From an uncultured Clostridia bacterium (lineage in GTDB: Bacteria; Bacillota; Clostridia; Oscillospirales; Ruminococcaceae): DNA of 64,000 nt. Position 1 is the first letter of the stretch; each line of letters starts with the position of its first letter. The stretch is from NCBI GenBank assembly GCA_946567425.1, contig CAMNXF010000011.1:1-64000 (forward strand). Direction: 5' to 3'. A model generated the notes under the pieces. The model was not told the DNA's origin, ran no database searches, and was given only the letters and a program-made list of their open reading frames with translations. The translations under genes and the position numbers were made by a program. Shown here piece by piece: positions 13,372-49,865 of this stretch.

Positions 13372-13408
13372 ATTGCGTCCCACCTCTTTAGGTGGGGGAG
13401 GATGTCAC
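13320..13408 (+). mobile_element. 89-bp miniature IS200/IS605-like element
   Basis: It begins 3' of TTAT (13316-13319) with the same 58-bp left end as the TnpB element at 16362, including the hairpin CCCACTT...AAGTGGG. It ends with a second hairpin (CCCACCT...AGGTGGG) and gtcac. It carries no gene. Removing it restores the reading frame of the interrupted regulator. The right hairpin differs from that of the TnpB element, so this copy may be a chimera. Confidence 0.8.
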
Positions 13409-16099: not shown

Positions 16100-16361
16100 A
16101 TGCGCCCATTTTTCAATTCTGTATCCGAAATAAATTTGTCAATCTTTTTTACTTGAGTTTCTGCCCTGGAAAAGAAAGCGGATGTTTTTCCCGTATATTT
16201 GAAGAACGATCTATCGTATATAGTTCCAATATGGTCATATCTCGTTTTTGCTTTGAAAATTCAAGAATACCGGTTCTTGAAACGCTTTTGATAAAGTTGG
16301 TAAAAGGCGCTTCTTTAGCAATTGGCAGTGAGCGCGGAGATGACTGTGTTCGTGAATTTAT

Positions 16362-17690
16362 CAAACTCCGCAAGAAGACTCCCACTTCTAAGCGAGGCGA
16401 AAGTGGGAGATGAATTGCGGAATAGGAGGTGAAAAGAATTGAATAAATCTTATAAATTCAGAATATATCCAAACGCAGAACAGCAAATAATGTTTGCTAA
16501 GACTTTCGGCTGTGTAAGATTGGTATACAATTATTACTTAGACAGAAAAATCAAACAATATCAAGACGATAAGTCGGCTGTAAACTATACTCAATGTGCT
16601 AATGAAATGGTGCAGTTAAAGAAAACAGAAGATTTTAGTTTTCTAAAAGAGGTAGACAGTATATCTCTGCAACAGTCACTTCGCCATCTTGATACGGCTT
16701 TTCAGAATTTCTTCAGAAGTCCTAAAGTTGGATTTCCAAAGTTCAAGTCAAAGAAATCCAACCACAGAAGTTACACAACAAATTGTGTGAATGCTAACAT
16801 AAAACTCGAAAACGGCTATATCAAGTTGCCAAAAGTCGGAACAGTCAAGCTAAAGCAACACCGTCAAATCCCAAGTGATTACAAGCTTAAATCTGTAACG
16901 GTCAGCCAAACTCCGAGTGGAAAGTACTATGCAAGTATTTTATTTGAGCATGAGTATTCTATACAATCAATAGAACCACGCTCCTTTCTTGGATTGGATT
17001 ATTCCATGCACGAGTTGTACAAGGACAGCAATGGTAATGAACCTTGTTATCCGAGATATTACAGACAAGCGGAAAAGAAGCTTGCACGTGAACAACGTAA
17101 GTTATCACTAATGCAAAAAGGCTCTAAAAACCGTGACAAACAGCGTATTAAAGTTGCAAAGCTACACGAAAAAGTCGCTAATCAAAGAAAAGATTTCTTA
17201 CACAAGCATTCAGCAATGATAACCAAATTGTATGATTGTATCTGCATTGAAGATTTGGATATGAAAGCGATGTCGCAAAGTTTGCATTTTGGAAAATCCG
17301 TCAGCGATAACGGCTGGGGAATGTTTACCACTTTTCTTGCTTATAAACTTGCAGAACAAGGCAAACAACTTGTAAAAGTGGACAAATTCTTTGCGAGTAG
17401 TCAGATTTGCAGCTGTTGTGGGTGCAAAAATCCTGCAATCAAGAATATTGCAATCAGAGCGTGGGATTGTCCTGAGTGTGGTACACATCACGACAGGGAT
17501 GTAAACGCTGCTATAAATATCAGAAATGAGGGTATGCAACTTGTAAACGCATAATCTATACATAAAACCGTGGGACACACGGGGTTAGCCTGTTGATACT
17601 GTATTCGTTGGAGTACTTGAGCAGGAAACTCAACCGTTAGAAGCTCCTGCCTCTAAGCGAGGTACGAGCGTAGGCGGGAGAGTATGTCAC
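16362..17690 (+). mobile_element. IS200/IS605-family element with tnpB only
   Basis: 1,329 bp inserted immediately 3' of TTAT (16358-16361), with no target duplication. The left end has the hairpin CCCACTT...AAGTGGG. The right end has the subterminal hairpin CTCCTGCCTC...GGCGGGAG and terminates ...gtatgtcac. There is no TnpA transposase inside, so mobilisation would need a TnpA elsewhere. Excision rebuilds the interrupted gene exactly. Confidence 0.9.
16439..17554 (+). CDS. tnpB: TnpB RNA-guided nuclease (IS605 OrfB)
   Basis: 371 aa from TTG 16439 (RBS ggaggtg). The N-terminal OrfB helix-turn-helix begins YKFRIYPNAEQQIMFAKTFG. RuvC residues are visible: FLGLDYSMHELY (Asp), CICIEDLDMKAM (Glu) and CGTHHDRDVNAAINI (Asp). 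A zinc ribbon lies between (CSCCGCKN and CPECGTHH). TnpB cuts DNA next to a target-adjacent motif using RNA from the element's right end. All three catalytic residues are present, so it appears active. Confidence 0.93.
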   Translation: MNKSYKFRIYPNAEQQIMFAKTFGCVRLVYNYYLDRKIKQYQDDKSAVNYTQCANEMVQLKKTEDFSFLKEVDSISLQQSLRHLDTAFQNFFRSPKVGFPKFKSKKSNHRSYTTNCVNANIKLENGYIKLPKVGTVKLKQHRQIPSDYKLKSVTVSQTPSGKYYASILFEHEYSIQSIEPRSFLGLDYSMHELYKDSNGNEPCYPRYYRQAEKKLAREQRKLSLMQKGSKNRDKQRIKVAKLHEKVANQRKDFLHKHSAMITKLYDCICIEDLDMKAMSQSLHFGKSVSDNGWGMFTTFLAYKLAEQGKQLVKVDKFFASSQICSCCGCKNPAIKNIAIRAWDCPECGTHHDRDVNAAINIRNEGMQLVNA

Positions 17691-17938: not shown

Positions 17939-18115
17939 GTGTCCCCGAAAGGCAGACCAACAACCAACAAGAAAACCGAGCGGTTAGAAATACGCCTTGC
18001 ACCTAATGAGCTAGAGCTTATGCAGGAGTGCGCAGACAAGCTCAAGATAAGCAAAACGGACGTAATAAATAAGGGCGTGAAGTTGGTTAAAGAAGAACTC
18101 GACAAAAATAAATAG
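17939..18115 (+). CDS. Ribbon-helix-helix regulator, cassette A
   Basis: 58 aa from GTG 17939 (RBS taggaggtg). An N-terminal basic arm (SPKGRPTTNKKTER) is followed by LEIRLAPNELELMQ (beta strand and helix A) and then KISKTDVINKGVKLV (helix B). This is the Arc/MetJ fold, which binds inverted repeats as dimers. The operator around its own promoter is the obvious target. Its stop codon lies inside the terminator stem of a convergent short RNA. Confidence 0.75.
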   Translation: MSPKGRPTTNKKTERLEIRLAPNELELMQECADKLKISKTDVINKGVKLVKEELDKNK

Positions 18116-18176
18116 GGTTTGCGTTACCCTCTCAAAGTGACCGCAAACCCTAACACACCAACCCCGAAAGGTCGGT
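18105..18176 (-). ncRNA. Convergent short RNA, cassette A
   Basis: Predicted transcript of about 70 nt from the minus promoter at 18183-18211. It ends at an 11-bp stem (TAGGGTTTGCG / CGCAAACCCTA, 18113-18152) followed by U-rich sequence only on this strand. It is complementary to the last codons of the regulator mRNA. No reading frame of note. Confidence 0.55.
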
Positions 18177-18237
18177 AAATCCATTATACCACACCTTTCG
18201 GGAAAAGTCAAGACGAAAGGAAAGGCATTATGGAAAA
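18156..18237 (+). repeat. 82-bp direct repeat shared with 36705-36786
   Basis: The block from caccaaccccgaaagg to the ATG and first codons of the next gene is the same at 36705-36786, with a single difference. It contains a minus-strand promoter, its inverted-repeat operator (CCCGAAAGGT / ACCTTTCGGG) and a plus-strand RBS. The sharing suggests cassettes exchange parts by recombination. Confidence 0.85.
18183..18211 (-). promoter_or_regulatory. Convergent minus-strand promoter, cassette A
   Basis: On the minus strand: TTGACT, 17 bp, TATAAT. Its operator-like repeat CCCGAAAGGT (18163) / ACCTTTCGGG (18193) spans the -10 box. It differs in sequence from the operator of the plus-strand promoter, so a different regulator may bind. 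Confidence 0.7.
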
Positions 18238-19105
18238 TAATATTGCAACAATGAAAAGTGAGAAGTTTGGTAAAGTCCGCTTGATATTTGAGGGAGATAA
18301 GGTCCTTTACTGCGCTGCTGATGTGGCGCACGCGCTTGGATATAGCAATGGGCGAGACGCTGTTGCGAGACACTGCAAGGGGGTTCTGAAACGAAATACC
18401 CCAATATGTAGCGTCGCGAAACGCGACGCACCAACATCTAGTAGTGTTAAGGAGCTTTCTTACCTCACCGAATCAGACGTATACCGCCTAATCTGCCACA
18501 GCAAACTGCCGTCGGCTCTGGAGTTCGAGAAGTGGGTATTTGAGGACGTTGTTCCAAAAGCGGTGAATGACAATATGAACACCGAAGCGGAACAGCTCAC
18601 GCTCGAAACAAGCGAATATCACTACTTCCCGAAAACGCTGAATGGCGTACCCGTCATCACGATAGCGGATTTTTCGTACTTCACGGGCGTTGCAAGCGGT
18701 AAAATCTACAAGCCGCTGAGAAAGATTTGCAAGCTCGGCGAGGAGTACTTCTCGCTGTCAAGCGCGGGTATCGCGCATTACAAGCGTGAAAATCCCAACG
18801 TCAGCAGACTCCAGAGCGTTGCGCTGGTACTCAAAGAAAGCGCTGTCCGCAAGCTGCTGAAATACTTTGATTTGTCGGTCGATATACCTATGATCGAGGA
18901 AAAGAAAGCACTTCCCACAACAGAAGCTGAACCCGTCACAGCCAACCGCAAGCCGAAATACGTCACCACCGACGACGCTATTGTCGCCCTTGAGGTGCTT
19001 CGTTACGTAAAGGAACACAACGAAAGCTACAAGCGTTACGATCAAGTTGCCGCAATCGAAAAAGTTATTAAAGACGTTGGTATGTTGATTGCCGCGGGAT
19101 ACTGA
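18230..19105 (+). CDS. Bro-N antirepressor, cassette A
   Basis: 291 aa. The Bro-N domain is at the N-terminus (FGKVRLIFEGDKVLYCAADV, then HALGY...LTESDVYRLICHSKL...FEKWVFEDVVPKAV). A second folded region follows, and the C-terminus has a Lys/Glu-rich segment. Bro-N proteins act as phage antirepressors or DNA-binding regulators. It sits behind the regulator and convergent RNA and ends at a terminator. RBS gaaaggaaagg. Confidence 0.8.
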   Translation: MENNIATMKSEKFGKVRLIFEGDKVLYCAADVAHALGYSNGRDAVARHCKGVLKRNTPICSVAKRDAPTSSSVKELSYLTESDVYRLICHSKLPSALEFEKWVFEDVVPKAVNDNMNTEAEQLTLETSEYHYFPKTLNGVPVITIADFSYFTGVASGKIYKPLRKICKLGEEYFSLSSAGIAHYKRENPNVSRLQSVALVLKESAVRKLLKYFDLSVDIPMIEEKKALPTTEAEPVTANRKPKYVTTDDAIVALEVLRYVKEHNESYKRYDQVAAIEKVIKDVGMLIAAGY

Positions 19106-23676: not shown

Positions 23677-23859
23677 ATGAGCCCACGAACAGGCAGACCA
23701 AAATCTGATAACCCGAAATCAACGCAACTTGCGGTTCGGCTTGATGATGAAACAATCAAGAAATTAGATACGGTCGCCAAAGTCAATTCAGAAACGAGAG
23801 TTCAAACCATAAGGCGTGGCATTGATAAACTCTATTCTGAATTGGACGAAAAGAAATAA
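23677..23859 (+). CDS. Ribbon-helix-helix regulator, cassette B
   Basis: 60 aa, ATG 23677 (RBS gtgaggtg). SPRTGRPKSDNPKS arm, TQLAVRLDDETIKKLD and TRVQTIRRGIDKLYSE match the Arc/MetJ fold. It shares the 'GRP' basic arm with the cassette A regulator. The operator around its promoter is the expected target. Its TAA is inside a minus-strand terminator stem. Confidence 0.78.
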   Translation: MSPRTGRPKSDNPKSTQLAVRLDDETIKKLDTVAKVNSETRVQTIRRGIDKLYSELDEKK

Positions 23860-23920
23860 GGCGCTGCTCCCCGACTAAAGTTTGCAGCACCTTACTTAAC
23901 CATTGACAGATTGCTCTATC
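23850..23920 (-). ncRNA. Convergent short RNA, cassette B
   Basis: About 70 nt from the minus promoter at 23927-23955. The terminator stem TAAGGCGCTGC (23857-23867) / GCAGCACCTTA (23884-23894) is followed by a T-rich run only on the minus strand. Its loop contains gtcgggg, also present in the cassette C RNA loop. Confidence 0.55.
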
Positions 23921-23926
23921 AAATAC

Positions 23927-23980: not shown

Positions 23981-24253
23981 ATGGAAAAATTTGAATTTGA
24001 TTTAGAACAGGCAAGGTATGAGTTGGAGAACATTGAGAACTTAATCTCGGTATTCTGGGATTTTTTCAGCGAAGGAAGACCGATTGGCAATCCACCCGAC
24101 AAGTGTGAAACATTTTTATTTGTGCAAAAAAGCGAGACCTATGAAAGCGTAATTATTACGGTTTGGGACAAAATCCGTAAAATACGCGCCGATATGGAAA
24201 CCGCCATTGACAGGACTTGTGAGAAAAGCAGGAAAGGCGGTGAGGTTGCGTGA
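23981..24253 (+). CDS. Small helical protein preceding antirepressor B
   Basis: 90 aa from ATG 23981 (RBS gaaagga). Acidic and helical (FDLEQARYELENIENLISVF). It ends in ATG/GTG overlap with the antirepressor and occupies the same slot as the 74-residue protein in cassettes C and D. Possibly a partner or modulator; function unknown. Confidence 0.6.
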   Translation: MEKFEFDLEQARYELENIENLISVFWDFFSEGRPIGNPPDKCETFLFVQKSETYESVIITVWDKIRKIRADMETAIDRTCEKSRKGGEVA

Positions 24254-25011
24254 ACGAACTGCAAACCTTTACTTACAACAATTTACAGGTGCGCATGGTC
24301 GAGAAAAATGGCGAGCCGTGGTGGGTGCTGAAAGATGTGTGCGAGGTGTTGGGAATATCCAAATACCGTGATACAGCAAGTAGGCTTGATGAAGATGAAA
24401 GGGGGTCGGTTAGACTGGACACCCCTGGCGGTAAGCAAGAAATGACGGTAATCAACGAAAGCGGCTTATACAACGTCATTCTCCGCTCGGACAAACCTGA
24501 AGCGAAACCGTTCCGCAAGTGGGTCACAAGCGAGGTACTCCCCTCAATCCGCAAGCACGGTGCTTATATGACAGACAAAACGTTGGAACAAGCGCTTACA
24601 TCTCCCGATTTTCTCATTCGGCTTGCAACCGAATTGAAAACGGAGCGCAAAAAAAGAGCAATGCTCGAAGAACAAGTGGAGAAAGACAAGCCGAAAGTGC
24701 TTTTCGCGAACGCTGTGGAGTGTTCCAAAACTTCGATACTCATCGGCGATCTTGCAAAAATACTCAAGCAAAACGGATACGAAATCGGACAGCGACGGCT
24801 TTTCGAGAAACTCCGCAACGACGGCTATCTGATGAAAACGGGCAGCTCGCGGAATATGCCCACACAACGGTATATGGAAATGGGGCTGTTTGAGGTCAAG
24901 GAAAGCACGATAAACAATCCCGATGGCACAATCCGAACAACCAAAACGACAAAAGTTACGGGAAAGGGGCAGACCTACTTCATTGATAAGTATTTAAGCG
25001 CGGCGACATAA
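24250..25011 (+). CDS. Bro-N / KilA-C antirepressor, cassette B
   Basis: 253 aa from GTG 24250. The Bro-N domain (NNLQVRMVEKNGEPWWVLKD to VTSEVLPSIRKHGAYM) is followed by a C-terminal ANT/KilAC domain (ILIGDLAKILKQNGYEIGQR, then NMPTQRYMEMGLFEVKE). This two-domain layout is the standard phage antirepressor. The N-terminus is closely related to the cassette D protein at 37572-38270, while the C-terminal domains differ. Confidence 0.87.
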   Translation: MNELQTFTYNNLQVRMVEKNGEPWWVLKDVCEVLGISKYRDTASRLDEDERGSVRLDTPGGKQEMTVINESGLYNVILRSDKPEAKPFRKWVTSEVLPSIRKHGAYMTDKTLEQALTSPDFLIRLATELKTERKKRAMLEEQVEKDKPKVLFANAVECSKTSILIGDLAKILKQNGYEIGQRRLFEKLRNDGYLMKTGSSRNMPTQRYMEMGLFEVKESTINNPDGTIRTTKTTKVTGKGQTYFIDKYLSAAT

Positions 25012-29928: not shown

Positions 29929-30350
29929 CGGAGCATAACCGTCCACGGAAAAATGATATTCGGGAAAGCCTCGGAGAGCTTTTTGAAAGGGTTTTCCCGA
30001 TGTATCTCAATATGGGAATGACAGCGGAGGGGTTTTGGGAGCAAGACCCCTCTTTGTGTGCGGCGTACAGAAAGGCGTATGAGAAACGTATCGAGCACGA
30101 GAGGGAAATGATAAACTATTCGGCTTGGCTGCAAGGACGGTACATTTACGATGCTCTTTGCGCGGTACACCCGATATACCACACCTTTGCCAAAAGAGGT
30201 ACAAAAGCAGCTCCGTATCATGAAGAGCCTATTAAATTTTATAAGAACGAGGAAGAAATGCGGCTTGGCGAGGAACAGAAGCTCCGCGATAAGACATATC
30301 AGTTCTTCCTTGCAATGATGGGAGGAGACGAACAGAAAAATGGCAAATGA
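29913..30350 (+). CDS. Tail assembly chaperone, second protein
   Basis: 145 aa from GTG 29913, overlapping the previous gene in the -1 frame. Helical: SLGELFERVFPMYLNMGMTA and YRKAYEKRIEHEREMINYSA. The position between tube/chaperone and tape measure matches the G-T chaperone partner. It could be made by frameshift or coupled reinitiation. Confidence 0.65.
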   Translation: MDGDITEHNRPRKNDIRESLGELFERVFPMYLNMGMTAEGFWEQDPSLCAAYRKAYEKRIEHEREMINYSAWLQGRYIYDALCAVHPIYHTFAKRGTKAAPYHEEPIKFYKNEEEMRLGEEQKLRDKTYQFFLAMMGGDEQKNGK

Positions 30351-33300
30351 TCTGAACATTGAAAGCCTGTCAATTGGTTTTCAGGTAACGTCCGCTTCCG
30401 CAATGGACGCGGTTGACAAGCTCGAAGAGAAACTTAATAAACTCAAAGCGGCGACACAGGGAGGCTTACAGGGCGCGTCCTCTGTGGCTAAGTCGCTGGA
30501 GAAGATAGCGTTAGCGGCGAAAGGCTTTGACAGCGTAGACACAGGCAAACTGACCGCAGTGGCAGAAGCGCTCAACAAGATCGGGAATATCGCGGTAGGC
30601 GGTAGTCTGTCGGGCGCAGCCGCGCAAATGAAAGACTTAACCAAAATCGGAAACGCGGTCGCAAATCTGCCGTCAATATCGTCAGGGCAGCTCCAAACGC
30701 TGACAGGTCTGGGCGCGGCTTTGCAATCGATTGCAAACGCTCCGCAGATACCTGATTTGTCGAGCACAGCTTCACAAATGAGAAATTTGACACGTATAGC
30801 AAATACAGTCACAGGCGTGCCCTCTGTATCAATAGGACAGCGTATGTCTTTATCAAGGCTTGTAGGGTCACTGCAATCGCTTTCAAATATCCCGCAATTA
30901 CCCGATCTTTCGAGCACCGCGCGGTCGCTCTCACAATTAAACGGTGTGGCGGCAAATATAACGGCAGTAGATATGTCCGCAATGGCTATTAAGATACAAG
31001 AGCTCACAAGCGCTTTAAAACCGCTTGAAACGCTCGGAAAGACAAATCTGTCGAGCTTTATAAACTCGCTGAAAAAGCTGCCCGAAATAAGCACCGCACT
31101 GTCAAGCATGGACATGGGAACGTTCGCTTCGCAGATACAGACGGTGGCAACGGCGATATCTCCGCTGACATTGGAGATAGAGCGTATGGCGAATGCCGTT
31201 GGCGCTTTGCCTCAGCCGATACAAAACGCGGTCGCGGGTCTGATAAACTATAACAACGCGACGCAGGTCGCGGGCAGCAGCACCAATCAGCTTTTGAACA
31301 GGATAAAGAACCTTTTAAGCATAGGCAGCATTGTCGCGGTATCGCGGCGAATAAAATACCTGTTCGGCGGTATGATCGAAAGCTCGAATATGTTTGTTGA
31401 GAATATGAACCTTTTTTCGGTATCAATGGGCAGCGCCGCCGACGAGGCTCTGAAATTTGCGAACAGAGTAAACGAGCTTATGGGTATCGACGTTTCGCAA
31501 TGGATACAAAATCAAGGCTATTTCAAGCAGATAGCCTCGGGCTTCGGCGTGGTCGAGGATAAGGCGAACTTGATGTCGCAGAATTTGACGCAGTTGGGTT
31601 TCGATAAAAGATTGTCGCTTTGTGGAGCGATCCACATTGAAAAACAAGGTGAACCTACAAATGTAGGGTGTGCGGCTTAATTGCCGTGCTAACGGGGGAA
31701 ACCCTAATGTTAAGTATATTTAACAAGGACAATCCCGTGCTAAGCCCTTTACAGGGAAAGTGTAACGACCATCTCGAAAGAGAGTAGCTTTAACGTGAAA
31801 TTCGTTATTGCGAAGTGCCTTGCCCCTCGCAAGAGGGTGATGATATGGTCTACTCCGACCGCCAAGAGCGGTGTTAAAGTACTCGGAAACGAGCGGTATT
31901 TAGGATATCCAGCTTCTATAATATCTCCGTAGAAAGCGCAATGCAGAAGCTCCAAAGCGGTATAAGCGGAGAAATTATGCCTTTGCGCAGTCTGGGCTAT
32001 GCCCTTGACGAAAGCACATTGAAACAGGTCGCGTTTAACCACGGCATAACGGACAGCTTAACCAATATGTCACAGGCTCAAAAGTCACAGATACGCTATC
32101 TGGCGATAATGGAGCAGTCCAAGAACGCTATGGGCGATATGGCGCGAACGCTTGAAAGCCCCGCGAACCAAATGAGAATATTCGAGCAGCGCATAGACCA
32201 ACTGAAACGCGCGATAGGTAACGGTCTTATGCCGATAATAAGCGCGGCGCTGCCGTGGGTAACGGCGTTTGTCAAGCTGCTTACAGAGGGCGCGCAGAAA
32301 ATAGCGGACTTCCTCGGCTTTGAGATACCGAAGTTTGACTACGGAGATCTTATAGCGGACAGCAACAAGGGCGTAAGCTCGAGCTTTGACAGCGCCACAA
32401 AGGCAGCTAAGGAGTTCAAGGGTACGCTGTCGAGCATAGATCAGCTTAACATTATCGGCGGCGAAAAGGACACAGGCAGTACAGGGCTCGGGAATATGTA
32501 CGACCTCAACATCGATTTGCCGTCCTATGACTTCCTCGGCGGACTGGAGGAGAGCACTGACAAGGCGTATAATAAGCTGAAAAATTTTGTAAACAACGCA
32601 TTGCCGTGGCTTGAAAGTTTCGGCACGGGTATTGCCATTGCGTTCGGCACTTCTAAAATAGGCGGCTTTATAACGTCTATCGGCAATTTATACGACGGTA
32701 TGAAAAAGTTCATAGGTCTGAACGGCGCGAAAACGTTCACGGGCATTGCGGGCGGTCTTGCGGCAGGAGCTACGTCGGGAATGCTGCTGTTCAACGGCAT
32801 TAAGAACCTTGTTACCAAAACGGGAGACTTGGCAAATAATTTCAACTTGGTAAAAGCGGGAGTAGGCGTTGCAGGCATAGCTCTTTCGGCATTTATCGCT
32901 ATGGGTAATCCTTTAGGTGCGGTTATTACTGTTGTTGGGGCGGGCGTTGGTGCTATTATGGGCGTTGTTCAAGGCATTGACGAAAACATTACTAAAATGA
33001 ACAAAACAATGTCTGATAGTATGCTTTTTAACAACGGCGGCACGAAAATAAGCGAGGTCGCGGACGCGTTCGGCGAATGGGCTAATACTGCTGAGGCTGT
33101 CAACAGACAGACCATTGATAAGTATAGTCAGCTTGACGAATATGACACGAAAATCGACAGCGTTTTGCAGACAATGCAGGAAATCGCGGGGGTTAATATC
33201 AACCCAACCGCCCTTACTGCCGAAGAAGCAGAGAATTTGCGCAAACCCTTTTCCGAGCTATGTGATTATTTGGAGACAAGTTTCAAGCAAAGAACACAGA

Positions 33301-34475
33301 CCGTTGCTGACGACCTAAAAGATATTTTTGCAAATCTGGGTCTTGGCGAAGTAGTTTCCTCGGAGATCGGTCAGGCTTATGCCGATATGCAGAATTTGTT
33401 CAGCCGAAACCTTACGGAGAGCCAAACAAAAGTTGATGAGTATTTGCAGAAAATAGCTTCGGGTGGTTCTCTTACAGAAATGCAACAGCTTGAATTTGCA
33501 AATGAATATAATAAGGTTCTTGATTATTCCAGATATAAAGATGAGTCATATATGGATGTTCAAAAGGCTCTTATGGCTTTTTCCGAACTTGACTTGTCTA
33601 AAATTGACTTTGAAACAGACGAAACAGCACAAAAGGCGCTTCAAGATGTTTTAGATAATGCCGCGTCATATCAAGATAGTGCTTTAGAGCGCTATACAGC
33701 CGAGATGGATAATCTTTTAGAATTAGAAATTCTGGCAAAATCTCAATACGAACACGGTGATTTAACTGAAAGCGAATATAAAAATCAACTTGATCTTATT
33801 GATTTTTCACGCGTAGTGTTTGCCGAGAACCTCAACTCTGAACTTGATGAAGTTATGGGCAATATTGAAAAGGTGCTAAGTCCGATAGATAAGCAACTCT
33901 ATGATGTTTCAAGTCTTGTAACGCCGACACTTTCACAAACATTGGCAGCCACAGAATACGCGAAAGGACAAGGACATTGGTTTGATATGTTTGAGTATTC
34001 TTCTCAAGTTGCGAGTGAAATTGCTCAAGGTGATTGGTTAGAAAATAACCCTACTTGGCAAAAAACACAAGAACTTAAGGACTTTGTGAGCGAAACCCAA
34101 AAACTGAAAATTGAAACGGAATTGCCTATTGATAATCAATATTCAGAAACGTATGAAATTGTGAAGAAAGCCCTAAATGGGGAAGACCTTTCATTGATGG
34201 CTAATCTTAAATTTGTCGCCGAAGAACCTACGGGCGAGGTCTACACACCGCCTAAAACTTACGATTCATACTATACAGCTCCAAGCGAACCTACAAAAGT
34301 CGTTGAAAATGACCCTGTAGCGGTTGCAGAGGCAGCCCAAGTATGGACAGCTTCACAAAATCAAGATGTTCCCGAATTTAACCTATACACTACGGTTGAA
34401 ATGGACGGCGCGGAGGTAAGTCGGCTTGTTACAGAGCGACAGGACTACGAAATGAGACTTTCAAACGGCAGATGA
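30340..34475 (+). CDS. Tape measure protein, split by a group I intron
   Basis: Exon 1 is 30340-31605 and exon 2 is 31905-34475; spliced length 1,278 aa. Exon 1 holds long repetitive helical segments (LSxLxxIPxLPDLSSTA-type). The junction reads LGFD/ISSFYNISVESAMQKL, the conserved tape-measure core. Exon 2 has a hydrophobic stretch (residues around ATSGMLLFNGIKNLV and VAGIALSAFIAMG) typical for membrane insertion, then a C-terminal domain. Unspliced mRNA would stop at 31678-31680. The protein sets tail length. Confidence 0.87.
31606..31904 (+). ncRNA. Group I self-splicing intron (no homing gene)
   Basis: 299 nt. P1 pairs exon CGAT with intron GTCG, giving the U-G pair at the 5' splice site. 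P7 is GACCAT with ATGGTC, formed by the R-like (gtgtaacgaccat) and S-like (gatgatatggtctactcc) elements. P8 is CCCTC/GAGGG, and P9 stems are ACCGC/GCGGT and CTCG/CGAG. A hairpin TCTC-gaaa-GAGA sits at P7.1. It ends in G 31904. Both exons are in frame. The subgroup looks IA-like. Confidence 0.88.
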
Positions 34476-34483
34476 TATTTAAA

Positions 34484-34512
34484 CCACCCCTTTTAAAGAG
34501 GGGTGGTTGACT
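34484..34512 (+). terminator. Terminator after tape measure gene
   Basis: Stem CCACCCC / GGGGTGG with a short AT loop. The T-rich tail also forms the -35 of the next promoter. It separates the accessory island from the tail operon. Confidence 0.7.
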
Positions 34513-34535
34513 TTTCTTACAACTTGTGGTATAAT
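34507..34535 (+). promoter_or_regulatory. Promoter of accessory lipoprotein operon
   Basis: TTGACT, 17 bp, TATAAT, placed 30 bp before the lipoprotein ATG. It gives the lipoprotein an expression route independent of the late operon, as expected for a moron. Confidence 0.78.
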
Positions 34536-34565
34536 GTAGAAAATTGACACTTGGAGGTACAGACA

Positions 34566-36032
34566 ATGAAAAAATCGGTTTTGGCAGGTGTGCTTGCAGC
34601 GGTTATGCTGCTGTCGGGGTGTTCGGGCGTTTCGCAGGACGAGTATAACTCGCTGTTGGAAGAAAATTCTAAGCTGAAAGAGAATAGCAGTTCATCGCCT
34701 ATAGACAGCGATACTACGCTTACAAATAGTGATACTACGTCAAATATAAAAAGCAAAAATAAGATTGCTAACACTGCAAATGATTTATTAGAATCTGGGG
34801 GAGAACCTACAAAACGTTTTTCAGAAAAAGACGAGGAACTTAGTTGCCAGACAGATTGGTATATTTATGATAAAGGCAATTCTATATATATGAACCAATT
34901 TAACAATATATCGGATAAAGAAATCGCAAACTCAATATATATTCTTTCTAACTGGCATAAATTAGGGGTTAATGGGTATGAAGCTAAAAAAATTGAATGG
35001 GAAGCCGATTATCTTGTGTTCAAAAGAAATGATGGTACTGTTATTGCGGGTGAAAAATTTGTTAATAAAAAAGATGGCAATTACTCTCACGAAATAGAGT
35101 GGTCAGACGAGTGCGTAAAAGCCGAATACGAAAAAGGACTTTCCGACAAAAGTTTTGAAAATAGTTTTAATGAATATTTAAAGAAATACCCGCGTGATGA
35201 TATTGAAAGTGAAACAAATTCCACTACGTCTGATAATACAAGCATTGATGTAAATGAGATGATTGAAAACGGCGAAGCAGTAGTCTCTCCACTTACGGGT
35301 GTTATATGGCTCTTTTCTAAAGAAGATTCTGCTTATATCACCAATGTCGGATTTGATCCCTTTGTTAATAGAAGCGACGAAGATAAAATAGGGCTATGCT
35401 ATTTAGATGCTTTGTATTTTGCGTCTGACGAACAATTTGCAGATGACTATTTTTTGTTTCTTGTTTGGGGCGAACCTAACAGCAATAATGTTGTTGCACG
35501 TTGCACAATTACCCATTTTTTAGGCGAAACCTCAATATCAGATAATAGCATAGTGTGGGAAAATGAATGGAAAGAATTTAATAATTCTGATATAAATAAA
35601 AAATATATAGAATTGATTAAAAATTACGATTTTAGCAAAATAACAGACAATTTTGAATTAGATGGCTACAAAGTGAATTTTACTGGAAAGTATGATTTTG
35701 TAATATTAGATAACCAATTTAGTTCTTATAATGGTCAAACTTTGCTAACTGTTAATGTAGATATTGAAAATTTGTCCAATGATTTTGATTCGAGAGGTTA
35801 TAGCTATTGCACGCTTTATTGTCAAGCCTCAGCTCCTGATGGGTCTGGACTTTCTACGCTTGATGCATATTTGGGCGATAACGGAATTTTGGGTAGCAAA
35901 ATTTATGTAGGGCAAACGTTTAACGGGAATATTGCTGTTCCGTATGTCGGAGACGGAGAATACCGTTTTGAATTTAAAGATATTGGTGACAATCGAAAAT
36001 ATGTTTACAAAATTGATGTTACAAAGTCTTAA
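34566..36032 (+). CDS. Accessory lipoprotein (moron)
   Basis: 488 aa from ATG 34566 (RBS tggagg). Signal peptide MKKSVLAGVLAAVMLLSGCS with a clear lipobox (LSGC). A Ser/Thr/Asn-rich linker follows, then unrecognised mature regions rich in Asn, Asp, Tyr and Phe. Base composition is more AT-rich than the tail genes. Surface lipoproteins expressed from prophages sometimes block superinfection; that role is inference. Confidence 0.7.
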   Translation: MKKSVLAGVLAAVMLLSGCSGVSQDEYNSLLEENSKLKENSSSSPIDSDTTLTNSDTTSNIKSKNKIANTANDLLESGGEPTKRFSEKDEELSCQTDWYIYDKGNSIYMNQFNNISDKEIANSIYILSNWHKLGVNGYEAKKIEWEADYLVFKRNDGTVIAGEKFVNKKDGNYSHEIEWSDECVKAEYEKGLSDKSFENSFNEYLKKYPRDDIESETNSTTSDNTSIDVNEMIENGEAVVSPLTGVIWLFSKEDSAYITNVGFDPFVNRSDEDKIGLCYLDALYFASDEQFADDYFLFLVWGEPNSNNVVARCTITHFLGETSISDNSIVWENEWKEFNNSDINKKYIELIKNYDFSKITDNFELDGYKVNFTGKYDFVILDNQFSSYNGQTLLTVNVDIENLSNDFDSRGYSYCTLYCQASAPDGSGLSTLDAYLGDNGILGSKIYVGQTFNGNIAVPYVGDGEYRFEFKDIGDNRKYVYKIDVTKS

Positions 36033-36374: not shown

Positions 36375-36408
36375 ATTCCCTTTGCACAAAGCAGAGGGGA
36401 TATTTTTG
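36375..36408 (+). terminator. Terminator of the lipoprotein operon
   Basis: Stem ATTCCC / GGGGAT (one G-U pair) with a 15-nt loop, followed by five T. Confidence 0.6.
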
Positions 36409-36436
36409 TGCAATCCTACAAAATTTGAAAAAGATA

Positions 36437-36465
36437 TTGACACAAATGTTAATTTATGATATGAT
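36437..36465 (+). promoter_or_regulatory. Cassette C promoter
   Basis: TTGACA, 17 bp, TATGAT. The -10 region is part of a run of about four 5-bp atatg-type repeats ending at 36473. Copy number changes there would alter promoter spacing. Confidence 0.7.
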
Positions 36466-36488
36466 ATGATATGAAAAGAGGTGAAATG

Positions 36489-36665
36489 ATGGGATTGGAT
36501 AATTTGCCTGACATCATAACCGTAAAGCAATTAGCCGATTTTTTGCAAATTAGCGAATTGACGATATTAAGAGCTATAAAGGCTGGAAATTTAGATGCAT
36601 TTAAAGCTGGCAGAGATTGGAGGATTGAACGAGAAGCGGTTTTGAAATGGGTAAAAAAGAAATAA
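36489..36665 (+). CDS. Excisionase-like HTH regulator, cassette C
   Basis: 58 aa from ATG 36489 (ATG 36486 also possible; RBS agaggtg). ITVKQLADFLQISELTILRA then FKAGRDWRIEREAVLKWVKK is the MerR/excisionase winged helix. It takes the slot that ribbon-helix-helix regulators hold in the other cassettes, so the regulator is interchangeable. Confidence 0.78.
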   Translation: MGLDNLPDIITVKQLADFLQISELTILRAIKAGNLDAFKAGRDWRIEREAVLKWVKKK

Positions 36666-36725
36666 GCTGTTGCCCCCGACCAAGGAAAACAACAGCTTAT
36701 CAACCACCAACCCCGAAAGGTCGGT
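36655..36725 (-). ncRNA. Convergent short RNA, cassette C
   Basis: About 70 nt from the promoter at 36732-36760. The terminator stem ATAAGCTGTTG (36662-36672) / CAACAGCTTAT (36690-36700) has a T-run on the minus strand only. The stop codon of the regulator lies in the stem. The same stem is present at 39434-39473. Confidence 0.55.
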
Positions 36726-36731
36726 AAATCC

Positions 36732-36760
36732 ATTATACCACACCTTTCGGGAAAAGTCAA
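36732..36760 (-). promoter_or_regulatory. Convergent minus-strand promoter, cassette C
   Basis: On the minus strand: TTGACT, 17 bp, TATAAT, with the inverted repeat CCCGAAAGGT / ACCTTTCGGG. It lies in the 82-bp block shared with cassette A. Confidence 0.7.
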
Positions 36761-36775
36761 GATGAAAGGAAAGGC

Positions 36776-37014
36776 ATTATGGAAAAAATGTCATTGGAAG
36801 ACAAGATTATGGAAATCGCGAGTATGGCAGACCAAATCGGGACTATCGCATTTTGCGCGGCAAATGTATCATTCGATCCAGATAAATGCGAGATGGTTCT
36901 TGATGACGTTTTGAGCGGCATTGAGAACTTGTGTAAAAAACTTAGTGATGACTTGATCACACTTAACAATTCATTGGGTGAATTGGGGAGGGTGGTTGTA
37001 TGAACGAACTGCAG
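36776..37014 (+). repeat. Left arm of a perfect 239-bp inverted repeat
   Basis: Reading by eye, identical to the reverse complement of 38256-38494. It covers the complete 74-residue gene plus the start codon and first five codons (MNELQ) of the following antirepressor. Confidence 0.92.
36779..37003 (+). CDS. 74-residue helical protein, cassette C copy
   Basis: KMSLEDKIMEIASMADQIGT start and a helical, acidic body. It is identical to the protein at 38267-38491 on the other strand and overlaps the antirepressor start by 4 bp. It may modulate the antirepressor; unrecognised. RBS gaaaggaaagg. Confidence 0.68.
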   Translation: MEKMSLEDKIMEIASMADQIGTIAFCAANVSFDPDKCEMVLDDVLSGIENLCKKLSDDLITLNNSLGELGRVVV

Positions 37015-37515
37015 CTTATAAACACAGACGGTGAATTTTATGCCGACAGTCGCGACGTGGCGCAAGCTATTGAAAGAGAACACAGCAAATTGCTGAGAAC
37101 TATCCGTGAATACTGCGGTTTTCTTAATGAAGCCAAAATTGGCTTGAATGAATTTTTCGTTGAGGGTGAGTATAAGGACGGCATAGGTAGAACGCTCCCT
37201 TGCTACCTAATCACAAAAAAGGGCTGTGATATGATTGCTCACAAGCTGACAGGGCGCAAAGGGGTATTGTTTACGGCAGCGTATGTTACCGCGTTCGAGC
37301 AGATGAAAGAAACGGCAACGGCGCACAAAGCGGTTGAAACCGCTTCCGCGAGTGGAATATCAAGTCTTATCAAAAACGTGCGGATCGTTATGGAAAAGCA
37401 GGAAAGCGCACCAACAGAAATCGCGGCACAAACCGAGCTTTTTCTGCGGCACTTCGGTCTGCCCGTAATCAACGGGTTTGTAAAAACCTCGCCGTGGGAA
37501 CAGATAACCTACTGA
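37000..37515 (+). CDS. Rha-family antirepressor/regulator, cassette C
   Basis: 171 aa. The Rha-type domain shows TDGEFYADSRDVAQAIEREH, HSKLLRTIREYCGFL and CYLITKKGCDMIAHKL followed by GRKGVLFTAAYVTAFEQM. Rha proteins are phage regulators related to the phi31/Tuc antirepressors. The first five residues (MNELQ) lie in the inverted repeat. It converges on the cassette D gene at a shared terminator. Confidence 0.85.
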   Translation: MNELQLINTDGEFYADSRDVAQAIEREHSKLLRTIREYCGFLNEAKIGLNEFFVEGEYKDGIGRTLPCYLITKKGCDMIAHKLTGRKGVLFTAAYVTAFEQMKETATAHKAVETASASGISSLIKNVRIVMEKQESAPTEIAAQTELFLRHFGLPVINGFVKTSPWEQITY

Positions 37516-37522
37516 TGTATTA

Positions 37523-37556
37523 AAAGCACCCGCTCCTTTTATAAAGAGGGGCGGGT
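37523..37556. terminator. Bidirectional terminator between convergent antirepressors
   Basis: Stem CACCCGCTCC / GAGGGGCGGGT with T-rich sequence on both sides. It serves rha on the plus strand and the Bro-N gene on the minus strand, and would still do so after inversion. Confidence 0.75.
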
Positions 37557-37571
37557 TTGTGTATAACAAAA

Positions 37572-38270
37572 TCACGTAAAAATCTGTCTGAACTTTTCAA
37601 CCGCTTTGTCGTTATATACGAAAGTGTCAACTTCCTTGTTGGAGTGCTCCGATTTGGAGCGATACCACTCGCCGTATTCAGTGGTTTTCAGCCCGTGTTC
37701 GTTAGAGACGCGCCCTATCTTCTGCGCCGATACTCCGAACATCTGACCTATTTCGCTTGCCGAATACATCTTCTGCTCGGATTTCGGGAGCGGGATAAGC
37801 TGTGTTCCCGTGAGAACCTCGGCGGCTTTCGCGGCGAGAATGTTCTTGTACTCCGCTGAGAGCGTATCAACTTTCGAGAGCTTCAAAAACTGATTGGATA
37901 ACCGCACCTTTGCGTTCATCTCTTTAATCTCCAACGCCTTGTTGAGTTTTGTTGGTGTACTGTACGCTCCCGTCCTGCGGATTGAGGGGAGTACCTCGCT
38001 TGTGACCCACTTGCGGAACGGTTTCGCTTCTGGCTTGTCCGAGCGGAGAATGACGTTGTATAAGCCGCTTTCGTTGATAACATTGACTTCGCCTCGACGA
38101 CCTAACTTGAAGTTAGACCGTTCATCTTCATCAAGCCTTTCTGCAACCCTAGACGGGTTAGATAAGCCCAACACATCGCACACATCTTTCAATACCCACC
38201 ACGGCTCGCCATTTTTCTCGACCATGCGCACCTGTAAATTGTTGTAAGTAAAGGTCTGCAGTTCGTTCAT
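37572..38270 (-). CDS. Bro-N antirepressor, cassette D
   Basis: 232 aa. The Bro-N domain (NLQVRMVEKNGEPWWVLKD, VINESGLYNVILRSDKPEAK) is nearly the same as in the cassette B protein. The C-terminal domain differs (YSASEIGQMFGVSAQKIGRV, a helix-turn-helix). The first residues MNELQ are in the inverted repeat. Confidence 0.85.
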   Translation of the reverse strand: MNELQTFTYNNLQVRMVEKNGEPWWVLKDVCDVLGLSNPSRVAERLDEDERSNFKLGRRGEVNVINESGLYNVILRSDKPEAKPFRKWVTSEVLPSIRRTGAYSTPTKLNKALEIKEMNAKVRLSNQFLKLSKVDTLSAEYKNILAAKAAEVLTGTQLIPLPKSEQKMYSASEIGQMFGVSAQKIGRVSNEHGLKTTEYGEWYRSKSEHSNKEVDTFVYNDKAVEKFRQIFT

Positions 38271-38494
38271 ACAACCACCCTCCCCAATTCACCCAATGAA
38301 TTGTTAAGTGTGATCAAGTCATCACTAAGTTTTTTACACAAGTTCTCAATGCCGCTCAAAACGTCATCAAGAACCATCTCGCATTTATCTGGATCGAATG
38401 ATACATTTGCCGCGCAAAATGCGATAGTCCCGATTTGGTCTGCCATACTCGCGATTTCCATAATCTTGTCTTCCAATGACATTTTTTCCATAAT
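38256..38494 (-). repeat. Right arm of a perfect 239-bp inverted repeat
   Basis: Reverse complement of 36776-37014. The two arms flank 37015-38255 (1,241 bp), which holds the bodies of the two convergent antirepressors. Confidence 0.92.
38267..38491 (-). CDS. 74-residue helical protein, cassette D copy
   Basis: Same sequence as the protein at 36779-37003, read from ATG 38491 with RBS gaaagga. It overlaps the Bro-N start by 4 bp. Confidence 0.68.
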   Translation of the reverse strand: MEKMSLEDKIMEIASMADQIGTIAFCAANVSFDPDKCEMVLDDVLSGIENLCKKLSDDLITLNNSLGELGRVVV

Positions 38495-38515
38495 ACATTT
38501 CCTTTCAAAAAAAAC

Positions 38516-38545
38516 TTGACAAGGAAGTCCACTCTGTGATATAAT
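38516..38545 (+). promoter_or_regulatory. Convergent promoter, cassette D
   Basis: TTGACA, 18 bp, TATAAT on the plus strand, opposite to the cassette's genes. Inverted repeat CTCTGTGA (38532-38539) / TCACAGAG (38551-38558) surrounds the -10. This is the mirror image of cassettes A-C. Confidence 0.7.
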
Positions 38546-38551
38546 AGATTT

Positions 38552-38624
38552 CACAGAGGGAAACTTCTGTCTTGTTTGAATAGCGGCTGTTGACTGTGGT
38601 AGGTGTTCAGCCGCTATTCTTTTT
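38552..38624 (+). ncRNA. Convergent short RNA, cassette D
   Basis: About 73 nt. It ends at the 12-bp stem GAATAGCGGCTG (38578-38589) / CAGCCGCTATTC (38608-38619) followed by T5. The end abuts the stop of the ribbon-helix-helix gene on the other strand. Confidence 0.58.
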
Positions 38625-38784
38625 ACTGTTCCTTGCCCTCAAAATGTTCATCATGTTTTTTTAAGTATTCCGTGAGTGCTAATTTGAGTACAGTTGTTAC
38701 ATCAATGTAGTTCTCTTCGGCATATTTTTTTACACGGTTATACAATTCATCAGGCAAATTATATGTGCGTTGGATTTCACTCAC
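38623..38784 (-). CDS. Ribbon-helix-helix regulator, cassette D
   Basis: 53 aa from GTG 38784. SEIQRTYNLPDELYNRVKKY and YIDVTTVLKLALTEYLKK match the Arc-type fold. The start is uncertain: the GTG overlaps the only RBS-like sequence (gaggtg). It heads cassette D, whose antirepressor is the Bro-N gene. Confidence 0.68.
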   Translation of the reverse strand: MSEIQRTYNLPDELYNRVKKYAEENYIDVTTVLKLALTEYLKKHDEHFEGKEQ

Positions 38785-38801
38785 CTCTTTTCTATACACC
38801 T

Positions 38802-38830
38802 ATTATACACTTATCAAGTTTATTTGTCAA
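38802..38830 (-). promoter_or_regulatory. Cassette D promoter
   Basis: On the minus strand: TTGACA, 17 bp, TATAAT, just upstream of the regulator. Nearby direct repeats of gtgtata may be operator half-sites. Confidence 0.72.
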
Positions 38831-38948
38831 TGGTTTTTCCAAAAATTGTAGATTTGCACAAAAATCCACTCTATTTGCCAAGGGTAAGACAATTTTTTTG
38901 TGAGATATAACAAATTTCAAAACTGTAAAGATTTTTTAGAAAAACCCC

Positions 38949-38977
38949 TTGACAATAGGTTTAACCTATGGTATAAT
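38949..38977 (+). promoter_or_regulatory. Cassette E promoter with palindromic operator
   Basis: TTGACA, 17 bp, TATAAT. The 15-bp palindrome ATAGGTTtAACCTAT fills the spacer. A second inverted repeat (GTAAGG...CCTTAC) follows the start site. Confidence 0.75.
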
Positions 38978-39035
38978 ATAATTACAGTAAGGGAACACCT
39001 TACGAGTAACGGGGCAAGACGGGAAAGGAGAGAAA

Positions 39036-39155
39036 ATGAATGACGAAATGACAAACGAGCAATTCAATACAGTCTTAAAATTGATAATACAAATCATAAA
39101 AGACAGCAAGGACAAAGACGAAGCGGTCAAAAAAATAGAAGCCCTGCTTAAATAA
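39036..39155 (+). CDS. 39-residue helical protein, cassette E
   Basis: MNDEMTNEQFNTVLKLIIQI start, amphipathic helix, RBS gaaaggag. Its stop is inside the minus-strand terminator stem of the convergent RNA. It occupies the position of a cassette regulator but shows no DNA-binding motif. Confidence 0.6.
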   Translation: MNDEMTNEQFNTVLKLIIQIIKDSKDKDEAVKKIEALLK

Positions 39156-39209
39156 GCAAGACCTCTAAACACCACAAGGAACGGGCGGACTTGCCGCCGC
39201 CCAATCCTT
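39128..39209 (-). ncRNA. Convergent short RNA, cassette E
   Basis: About 80 nt from the promoter at 39216-39244. The 13-bp stem at 39137-39166 pairs fully only in minus-strand RNA, where the mismatches become G-U pairs, and is followed by seven U. This shows the terminator is selected for the minus strand. Confidence 0.6.
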
Positions 39210-39215
39210 AGTCTT

Positions 39216-39244
39216 ATTATATCACGTTTTGCCCCGAATGTCAA
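39216..39244 (-). promoter_or_regulatory. Convergent minus-strand promoter, cassette E
   Basis: On the minus strand: TTGACA, 17 bp, TATAAT, a perfect consensus, located just upstream of the RBS of the ribbon-helix-helix gene. Confidence 0.7.
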
Positions 39245-39260
39245 GAGAGGACGTGATCTT

Positions 39261-39437
39261 ATCGGCAAGGAAAAACTAACGCCGCAAGAGAAGTACGACA
39301 AGAGCAATACCCAGTTTATAGGTCTAAAACTTAATAAAAAAAGCGACAAAGATATTTTGGACGCGTTAGAGGGAAAACCAAAACAGACTGAGATAAAGCG
39401 GCTTGTCAGAAAAGGTCTTGACGCAGAGCAAAAATAA
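39261..39437 (+). CDS. Ribbon-helix-helix protein, cassette E, apparent AUC start
   Basis: 58 codons: GKEKLTPQEKYDKSNTQF, IGLKLNKKSDKDILDAL, KQTEIKRLVRKGLDAEQK. This matches RHH proteins of the 'KYDKxNTxxxxLKLNKKxD' kind. There is no ATG, GTG or TTG in frame near the RBS (gagagg); ATC 39261 is the best position. It is followed by the same terminator stem as cassette C, but the antirepressor expected downstream is missing. Confidence 0.6.
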   Translation: MGKEKLTPQEKYDKSNTQFIGLKLNKKSDKDILDALEGKPKQTEIKRLVRKGLDAEQK

Positions 39438-39473
39438 GCTGTTGACCATCTCGCAAACAAAACAACAGCTTAT

Positions 39474-39516
39474 CGTGATATCCTCCCATGCCTCTTTAGG
39501 CAGGGGAGAATGTCAC
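39474..39516 (+). mobile_element. 43-bp single-hairpin IS-related element
   Basis: It lies 3' of TTAT (39470-39473) and ends ...gaatgtcac, like the right ends at 13408 and 17690. The hairpin CCCATGCCTctttAGGCAGGGG resembles the right hairpin of the 13320 element. No gene. Possibly a solo right end. Confidence 0.65.
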
Positions 39517-39674
39517 GATAATTGATGAAAGAATTTCAAAAAAGCTATATTTTGAAATATCTATTTCACAAATCTGCGAAGATATTTCAAATTCATTGTT
39601 TTTTGATATATTGCTTAAAGATGTGTAATTATCATACGATCGTTAAAGGCAGCATAATTTTTTCGCTCAACCGC
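39517..39674 (+). other. AT-rich intergenic region with an inverted repeat
   Basis: No supported gene. TTTGAAATATCT / AGATATTTCAAA form a 12-bp inverted repeat (about 39551-39593) that could be a regulator site left from a lost cassette part. Confidence 0.45.
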
Positions 39675-49370: not shown

Positions 49371-49793
49371 ATGAATATGAAAATGTTGGACGACCTCCGC
49401 GAGTGTCTTTTTACGGAGCTTGACAAAATCGCCCGTGAAAAGTCGATAAACGCGACTAGTCTTGAACACATCCACAAGCTGACCGACAGCATTAAAAATA
49501 TTTACAAGATTGAAATGCTTGATGAAGGCGGCTACAGTGAGGCGGGCGAGTGGCATGCAAATGGCAGCTACGGCAACGAGAGCAGTTACGCGAACCGTGG
49601 TCAGCACTATGTACGCGGTCATTACAGCCGCGACGACGGATATTCCGGAAGACGCGACAGTCGTGGAAGATACAGCCGCGACGGCGGCCGTTCGGATATG
49701 CTCGAACATCTTCGTGACATGATGAACGACGCGGACAACGACAAAGACCGTGAGGCTATCCGCAGATGTCTCAAGCAGATTGAGGAAGGGTGA
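49371..49793 (+). CDS. Arg/Tyr/Gly-rich protein with C-terminal helix
   Basis: 140 aa. A helical N-terminus (LDDLRECLFTELDKIAREKS), an RGYSRDD-type low-complexity centre (GHYSRDDGYSGRRDSRGRYS) and a helical end (LRDMMNDADNDKDREAIRRC). The stop codon lies in the inserted miniature element; without it the same protein would end at a TAA 64 bp further. Unknown function. Confidence 0.6.
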   Translation: MNMKMLDDLRECLFTELDKIAREKSINATSLEHIHKLTDSIKNIYKIEMLDEGGYSEAGEWHANGSYGNESSYANRGQHYVRGHYSRDDGYSGRRDSRGRYSRDGGRSDMLEHLRDMMNDADNDKDREAIRRCLKQIEEG

Positions 49794-49853
49794 CATACTC
49801 TCCCGCCTACGCTCGTACCTCGCTTAAAGGCGGGAGTCTTCTTGCGGAGTTTG
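49790..49853 (-). mobile_element. 64-bp miniature IS200/IS605-like element
   Basis: On the minus strand it follows TTAT (49857-49854) and consists of the first 22 bp of the left end of the TnpB element plus about 42 bp of its right end, ending gtatgtcac. It looks like an internal deletion of that element. Confidence 0.82.
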
Positions 49854-49865
49854 ATAAAATTTTAA

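What the first reader, a model, noticed from the sequence alone, without database searches (positions are those of the whole stretch)
36776..38494. Possible invertible switch between two antirepressors
A perfect 239-bp inverted repeat (36776-37014 and 38256-38494) flanks the bodies of two convergent antirepressors, Rha (plus) and Bro-N (minus). The repeat includes the upstream 74-residue gene and the start plus first five codons (MNELQ) of both antirepressors. Recombination between the arms would swap which antirepressor is fused to which promoter, regulator and small gene, keeping both frames intact. The terminator between them works in both directions. The two upstream units have different regulators and operators (HTH versus RHH), so inversion would rewire control. 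Perfect identity of the arms implies recent exchange or gene conversion.
Basis: partly seen in the sequence, partly recalled or inferred. Interest (0 to 1): 0.88.

Follow-up and report, generated by a model that had tools for sequence, protein, structure and literature searches.

The report
Facing antirepressors with antisense RNA control
Two phage genes that can wake a dormant virus face each other inside copied flanking DNA; the copies look like traces of gene swapping rather than a proven flip switch, and each gene seems to be held in check by a small antisense RNA that recurs in other gut phages.

Summary
The inverted repeat is real: arms 36763-37014 and 38256-38507, 252 nt with two mismatches at the outer edge, 239 nt perfect. 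A dedicated invertible switch is not shown: no reads, no second orientation, no recombinase of the integrase/invertase kind among 28 window proteins scanned, 0 of 20 related loci with several antirepressor ORFs have them on both strands, and the closest relative phage has one same-strand module at this site. The arm borders fall on short motifs shared by many modules, which fits recent cassette exchange. The locus holds more than was noticed: four modules in this prophage share one layout, small DNA-binding gene, ~75-nt two-hairpin RNA on the opposite strand, usually a small gene, antirepressor. The RNA covaries at 20 of 20 pairs, matches no Rfam family at the curated threshold and recurs beside antirepressors in other phages. 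Folding predicts that the RNA, by covering the leader, closes the next ribosome site (openness 0.41 to 0.14 in 32 units; controls 0.46 to 0.47; held-out units 7 of 9). It works like P22 immI, by a different leader mechanism. All evidence is computational.

The parts
36763..37014 (+). inverted repeat, left arm (leader edge, 74-aa gene, first five antirepressor codons)
38256..38507 (-). inverted repeat, right arm
36437..36465 (+). promoter-like site of the HTH_17 gene (11 of 12)
36471..36665 (+). M3 regulator, HTH_17, 64 aa
36732..36760 (-). promoter-like site of the M3 antisense RNA (11 of 12)
36654..36728 (-). M3 predicted antisense RNA, two hairpins
36779..37003 (+). 74-aa small gene, left copy
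37000..37515 (+). Rha antirepressor
37528..37556 (+). terminator-like hairpin between the convergent genes
37572..38270 (-). Bro-N antirepressor
38267..38491 (-). 74-aa small gene, right copy
38516..38545 (+). promoter-like site of the M4 antisense RNA (12 of 12)
38549..38626 (+). M4 predicted antisense RNA, two hairpins
38623..38799 (-). M4 regulator, ribbon-helix-helix type, 58 aa
38802..38830 (-). promoter-like site of the M4 regulator (12 of 12)
17939..18115 (+). M1 regulator, phrog_876 type, 58 aa
   Evidence: sequence
18104..18182 (-). M1 predicted antisense RNA with leader spacer
18230..19105 (+). M1 Bro-N antirepressor, no small gene before it
23677..23859 (+). M2 regulator, phrog_876 type, 60 aa
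   Evidence: sequence
23848..23926 (-). M2 predicted antisense RNA with leader spacer
23981..24253 (+). M2 small gene, 90 aa, no convincing similarity to the 74-aa protein
24250..25011 (+). M2 antirepressor, Bro-N plus KilAC

Best explanation
The locus is a convergent pair of antirepressor 'morons' in the late region of a tailed prophage of a probably Clostridia-like host, two of four modules of one design in this phage. Design: a small DNA-binding gene is read from its own promoter; its downstream leader is copied on the opposite strand as a ~75-nt two-hairpin RNA from a strong promoter just before the next gene; then come a small gene (absent in M1) and an antirepressor overlapping it by ATGA. 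Inferred working: in the quiet prophage the antisense RNA covers the leader, which frees an anti-Shine-Dalgarno stretch that closes the first ribosome site, so small gene and coupled antirepressor stay off; when read-through mRNA outruns the RNA, an alternative leader hairpin occupies that stretch, the site opens, antirepressor is made and inactivates the phage repressor. The identical arms arose by recent copying or conversion of the small-gene segment between modules, using the shared leader and the MNEL-type start as short homologies. Shown from sequence: arms, layout, RNA conservation and covariation, predicted leader flip. Inferred: transcription, RNA pairing, translational coupling, antirepressor activity, how and when the arms were copied. 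Inversion by general recombination is possible but not established.
For: Arms. Second exchange M1/M3 (82 nt, 99%) and M2/M4 Bro-N similarity (119 nt 92%, 135 nt 88%). Same site in the relative phage: one module, one strand, no repeat of this kind; small gene 49% over 59 aa to the 74-aa protein; AntA+KilAC antirepressor. M4-type Bro-N (69.9% nt) in a single same-strand module of human-faecal record MT835941. RNA covariation at 20 of 20 pairs, 92.4% of 382 cells paired against 53.3% shuffled: (alignment fitted to the structure). No Rfam family at curated threshold. Position: of 18 R2 hits (E up to 1) outside window and training set, 12 lie within 700 nt upstream of an antirepressor ORF on the opposite strand; random expectation 4.5%. 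Promoter-pattern set not chosen by antirepressors: all 5 R2 hits with E below 1e-3 in 120 of 120 loci have a 57-75 aa regulator ending within 12 nt of the RNA 3' end: (L252 repeats the unit of L077). 7 of 8 regulators tested match phrog_876 'transcriptional repressor'. Leader flip: site openness 0.41 free, 0.14 bound in 32 units, controls 0.46 and 0.47; 23 of 32 at the 5% level; units not in that set: 7 of 9, or 5 of 6 after dropping repeats.
Against: No transcript data. A first crude promoter-plus-terminator scan found units at 6 of 90 antirepressors against 9 of 369 random positions. 9 of 32 units show no unusual closure and 12 of 32 no unusual drop at the 5% level; some are closed in both states. 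One hit without the layout (L031) also shows the closure. Six of 15 loci from the genome searches lack the layout; L112 and L115, in the training set, do not fit either. Some modules carry no antirepressor (L127, L137, L139, L140). 5 of 6 named phage records examined lack the RNA. Inverted repeats around a single antirepressor occur in L052, L053, L111 (50 nt, perfect, 4.2 kb apart) and L108 (39 nt, 87%), not followed up.
Confidence: 0.68

Rival explanations
1. Reversible switch: general recombination (or a phage annealing/resolving system) between the arms inverts the 1.2-kb core, so that Rha and Bro-N trade regulator, antisense RNA and promoter.
For: Perfect 239-nt arms 1.24 kb apart; inversion keeps both proteins intact because the arms include the starts; control units differ; RusA resolvase in the phage.
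Against: One orientation known; 0 of 20 loci with two or more antirepressor ORFs have them on both strands; no inverted arms around two antirepressors in the loci printed; single same-strand module in the relatives L121 and MT835941; no integrase or invertase among 28 window proteins scanned.
Confidence: 0.15
2. Assembly artefact: one arm, or the orientation of the core, is an error of assembling repeated DNA.
For: Perfect inverted repeats of this length are hard for short reads; assembly method unknown; no reads.
Against: The arms differ at two outer positions and lie in different unique flanks with complete, distinct modules on both sides; both gene starts are intact.
Confidence: 0.08
3. The opposite-strand unit is not an antisense regulator but a transcription-interference promoter or an unrelated trans-acting RNA, and the dyad over the -10 is a repressor operator.
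For: Strong promoters facing the regulator transcript; dyads over the -10 significant in 18 of 35 units; conserved-looking terminator loop.
Against: Leader closure on masking the RNA-covered stretch exceeds controls in 23 of 32 units and 7 of 9 further ones; M1 and M3 share the dyad but have different regulator types.
Confidence: 0.25

Closest known systems
Phage P22 immunity I region (mnt, arc, sar RNA, ant), the 'ant moron' (PMC2629481, passages seen)
   Same: moron in the late operon, small repressor genes, ~70-nt antisense RNA controlling the antirepressor, high turnover between phages
   Different: small overlapping gene before the antirepressor; the RNA ends about 35-45 nt short of the ribosome site and is predicted to act through a freed anti-Shine-Dalgarno, whereas sar is described as base pairing with ant mRNA to block initiation (PMC12197685, passages); four modules in one phage; regulator may be HTH_17; different host group
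P1/P7 c4 RNA and ant (PMC12197685, passages)
   Same: ~77-nt antisense RNA controls an antirepressor; a small frame (icd) before ant in P1 is recalled, from no call
   Different: c4 is described as pairing around the ant ribosome site; here the RNA has its own promoter on the other strand; no Rfam match
Invertible gene pairs such as the Mu G segment, shufflons and hsdS loci (recalled)
   Same: inverted arms that include gene starts, so inversion would keep frames
   Different: no linked recombinase found, no second orientation, inverted pair not conserved

Membership tests
P22 immI / ant moron | ribbon-helix-helix (Arc/Mnt-like) repressor gene before the antirepressor | tested here: inconclusive
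   M4 matches Arc-like PHROGs; M1 and M2 match phrog_876 'transcriptional repressor', ribbon-helix-helix by eye only; M3 has HTH_17 instead
P22 immI / ant moron | antirepressor gene | tested here: met
   Rha, Bro-N, Bro-N plus KilAC by Pfam; activity not tested
P22 immI / ant moron | short antisense RNA between regulator and antirepressor | tested here: met
   predicted in all four window modules; expression not tested
P22 immI / ant moron | antisense RNA covers the antirepressor ribosome site | tested here: not met
   predicted RNA starts about 35-45 nt upstream of the first ribosome site in the window modules
P22 immI / ant moron | homology of the RNA to sar | not tested
   sar sequence not compared
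Rfam C4 antisense RNA | match to the Rfam model | tested here: not met
   no family at gathering threshold in the window, none relevant up to E 5 in 36400-39600
Invertible phase-variable locus | inverted repeats bounding the segment | tested here: met
Invertible phase-variable locus | both orientations in relatives | tested here: not met
   0 of 20 loci with several antirepressor ORFs have both strands
Invertible phase-variable locus | both orientations in a population | not testable with these tools
   no reads
Invertible phase-variable locus | linked site-specific recombinase | tested here: inconclusive
   none among 28 window proteins scanned; left end of the prophage not in the contig

The most novel reading that the evidence does not exclude
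An uncatalogued family of antisense RNAs forms plug-in control units for phage antirepressors, acting by antisense-induced closure of a ribosome site; in this phage two such units face each other, and recombination between their identical small-gene arms lets two antirepressors trade control units, so that the prophage alternates how it can be induced.
Probability: 0.13. Interest if true: 0.88.

Novelty: new variant of a known kind. Interest (0 to 1): 0.6.

Why it matters
Antirepressor control by antisense RNA is known from P22 and P1/P7. The same logic appears here in phages of mostly Clostridia hosts, with a covarying RNA that no Rfam family describes, four copies in one phage, and exchangeable regulators and cargo. 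It gives a testable rule for how such prophages could hold antirepressors silent, and suggests why antirepressors with unrelated bodies share a leader and a start: these can serve as recombination joints. It also shows how an inverted repeat can look like a designed switch while being a likely product of cassette exchange.

Tried and rejected
Dedicated switch as leading reading: rejected (no second orientation, no opposite-strand pairs in the loci seen), kept as a rival. Origin of the arms from the Bro-N or Rha side by the fifth codon: uninformative, M2 has CAA and L006 has CAG. Scans for relatives of the 74-aa protein in IMG/VR and in 297 family genomes gave only the own genome; weaker homologs turned up by looking at fetched loci (L121 49% over 59 aa; L077 42% over 59 aa). 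The M2 90-aa protein is not a demonstrable relative. Crude promoter-plus-terminator scan: too weak alone (6 of 90 against 9 of 369 random positions and 0 of 90 gene bodies). R2 hits L125, L126, L129, L130, L132, L138 judged false by context. L112 and L115 stayed in the training alignment although their context does not fit. Dyad as operator: significant in 18 of 35 units only. In the leader test I chose 35 R2 hits that looked right; 3 had no ribosome site by my rule and were dropped. I then ran 21 further hits: 10 with the layout (9 with a site, 7 at the 5% level; L252, L123 and L070 repeat L077, L093 and L011) and 11 without it (3 with a site; L031 closes, L095 and L130 do not). Named phages with related antirepressors: RNA in 1 of 6 records.

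Papers: searches were seen as listings only; passages of PMC7067206, PMC2629481 and PMC12197685 were seen. Nothing in those listings or passages describes this RNA in Clostridia phages; most subscription papers are not held.

Full report
Observation. The inverted repeat is as described. Arms 36763-37014 and 38256-38507 are 252 nt with two mismatches near the outer edge; the inner 239 nt are perfect. In the own genome (2,914,524 bases, 40 contigs; the window is the first 64 kb of a 113,030-base contig) the sequence occurs nowhere else except 23 nt at 18215-18237. The bodies are Rha and Bro-N antirepressors, convergent. Each arm holds the ribosome site, a 74-aa gene and the start ATGAACGAACTGCAG; small gene and antirepressor overlap by ATGA.

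Surroundings. The window carries a tailed prophage: Gp157, RusA, a DUF927 protein, terminase, SPP1-type portal, capsid E, tape measure, amidase/CHAP. The contig starts inside it, so its left end is missing. The pair lies between tape measure and the next tail genes. Two further antirepressors lie at 18.2 kb (Bro-N) and 24.25 kb (Bro-N plus KilAC). All four have the same surroundings: a small DNA-binding gene (HTH_17 in M3; phrog_876 type in M1 and M2; Arc-like in M4), a strong opposite-strand promoter heading back over the gap, a small gene (not in M1), the antirepressor. In 36.3-39.5 kb the six best of 14 promoter-like sites include the two regulator promoters and the two opposite-strand promoters.

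The RNA. The opposite-strand units fold into two hairpins, the second a terminator; z-scores of seven units run from -4.8 to -6.4. A covariance model from three units (R1) gave 20 members (A6) and a second model (R2). In A6 92.4% of 382 cells pair against 53.3% in shuffles, and 20 of 20 pairs change on both sides. The alignment was fitted to the structure, and the second helix is a terminator; the first helix (84.6% paired, 8 of 8 pairs covarying) is the more telling. Rfam gives no family at its curated threshold in the window. R2 over 94 sources gives 39 hits up to E 1, 37 of them on the minus strand of loci oriented with the antirepressor on plus. Leaving out the 20 training members and one weak window hit, 18 remain; 12 lie within 700 nt upstream of an antirepressor ORF on the other strand, against 4.5% by random placement; L014/L035 and L011/L013 are near-duplicates. 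Those loci were fetched as antirepressor relatives. R2 finds 5 units with E below 1e-3 in the 120, all 5 with a 57-75 aa regulator ending within 12 nt of the RNA 3' end; L252 has the same unit as L077. By eye, antirepressor-like genes follow in L150, L177 and L252, another gene in L142, none in L204. In whole genomes 9 of 396 of a family sample and 4 of 398 of a phylum sample have a match at E 1e-3, the own genome counted in both. Of 15 loci looked at, 8 have regulator (by eye) and small gene in place, one (own contig C1) the small gene only, 6 do not fit. Pfam confirms antirepressors behind L123, L124 and L128. The RNA unit thus seems to be a platform whose cargo is often, not always, an antirepressor.

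How it may work. The RNA is complementary to the leader between regulator and small gene but stops about 35-45 nt before the ribosome site in the window modules. The read-through leader was folded free and with the RNA-covered stretch kept unpaired. Mean openness of the ribosome site fell from 0.41 to 0.14 in 32 units; with the spacer shuffled 100 times each, promoter hexamers kept, it was 0.46 and 0.47. In 23 of 32 units the bound state was as closed in at most 5% of controls; in 20 of 32 the drop was as large in at most 5%. Modules M1, M2, M3, M4 went from 0.95, 0.73, 0.94, 0.71 to 0.17, 0.17, 0.17, 0.05. Nine units with the layout that were not in this set gave 7 at the 5% level; without repeats of earlier units, 5 of 6. 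Of three hits without the layout that had a ribosome site, one closed as well. The freed stretch lies in the antisense promoter region and pairs with the ribosome site (structures). The RNA would thus silence the small gene and, by coupling, the antirepressor. M1 and M3 share the 5' half of the RNA and the leader at 99%, so they may cross-regulate.

The inverted repeat. Its outer border lies in the leader motif just inside the antisense promoter, its inner border in the MNEL-type start; both recur in other modules. The M1/M3 82-nt match ends likewise at a shared ATGGAAAA start. The nearest relative found, the record behind L006 and L121, has one same-strand module here, with an AntA plus KilAC antirepressor, and a Bro-N (80% to M4's) just before the terminase, where M1 lies in the window. 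MT835941 carries an M4-type Bro-N in a single same-strand module. Of 109 loci with an antirepressor ORF, 20 have two or more (split ORFs and near-duplicate contigs included) and none has them on both strands. The simplest reading is that a second module entered in reverse and the small-gene segment was recently copied from one to the other. Inversion by general recombination would swap control units without altering proteins; nothing available here could test it.

Comparison. It works like P22 immI: repressor, antisense RNA, antirepressor, a moron in the late operon with high turnover (PMC2629481, passages). It is not filed as a member, because the predicted RNA does not cover the ribosome site and homology to sar was not tested. 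The c4 RNA of P1/P7 is the other parallel (PMC12197685, passages). Paper searches listed nothing on such an RNA in Clostridia phages.

Verdict. Observation confirmed; switch not shown; the module family and its RNA are the worthwhile result, so far computational only.

Noticed in passing
window 31596-31940: The tape measure gene is split into two ORFs (30340-31680 and 31941-34475); 31596-31865 matches the group I intron model RF00028 at E 0.0011 (22.9 bits, below its curated cut-off of 50). Probably an ORF-less group I intron.
   Followed up: partly
window 34507-36032: Lipoprotein-like gene with its own promoter-like site; 34524-34669 is 86% identical to the start of a lipoprotein-like gene in relative L121 while the rest does not align: another conserved start with an exchanged body.
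   Followed up: no
window 39030-39440: A further opposite-strand promoter-like site (39244-39216, 12 of 12) with a weak R2 hit (39128-39181, E 0.058) between a 39-aa ORF and a small regulator-like ORF, without antirepressor: perhaps a reduced module.
   Followed up: no
G000:C1:58447-58522 (L136): A fifth R2 hit (E 9.3e-5) on another contig of the own genome, followed by an 84-aa small ORF.
   Followed up: partly
L126, L129, L132: R2 hits judged false lie at the 3' ends of short hydrophobic ORFs that by eye resemble holin-like toxins, and share the CTTTGGTCGGGG-like terminator loop.
   Followed up: no
L052, L053, L111; L108: Inverted repeats around a single antirepressor: 50 nt perfect, arms 4.2 kb apart (L111 from a Proteobacteria MAG record), and 39 nt at 87% (L108, cyanobacterium MAG record).
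   Followed up: no
window 13313-13377, 16355-16419, 16439-17554, 17644-17690, 49790-49863: TnpB/OrfB-type gene with two identical 65-nt copies and inverted relatives near 49.8 kb: IS200/IS605-type element and scars.
   Followed up: no
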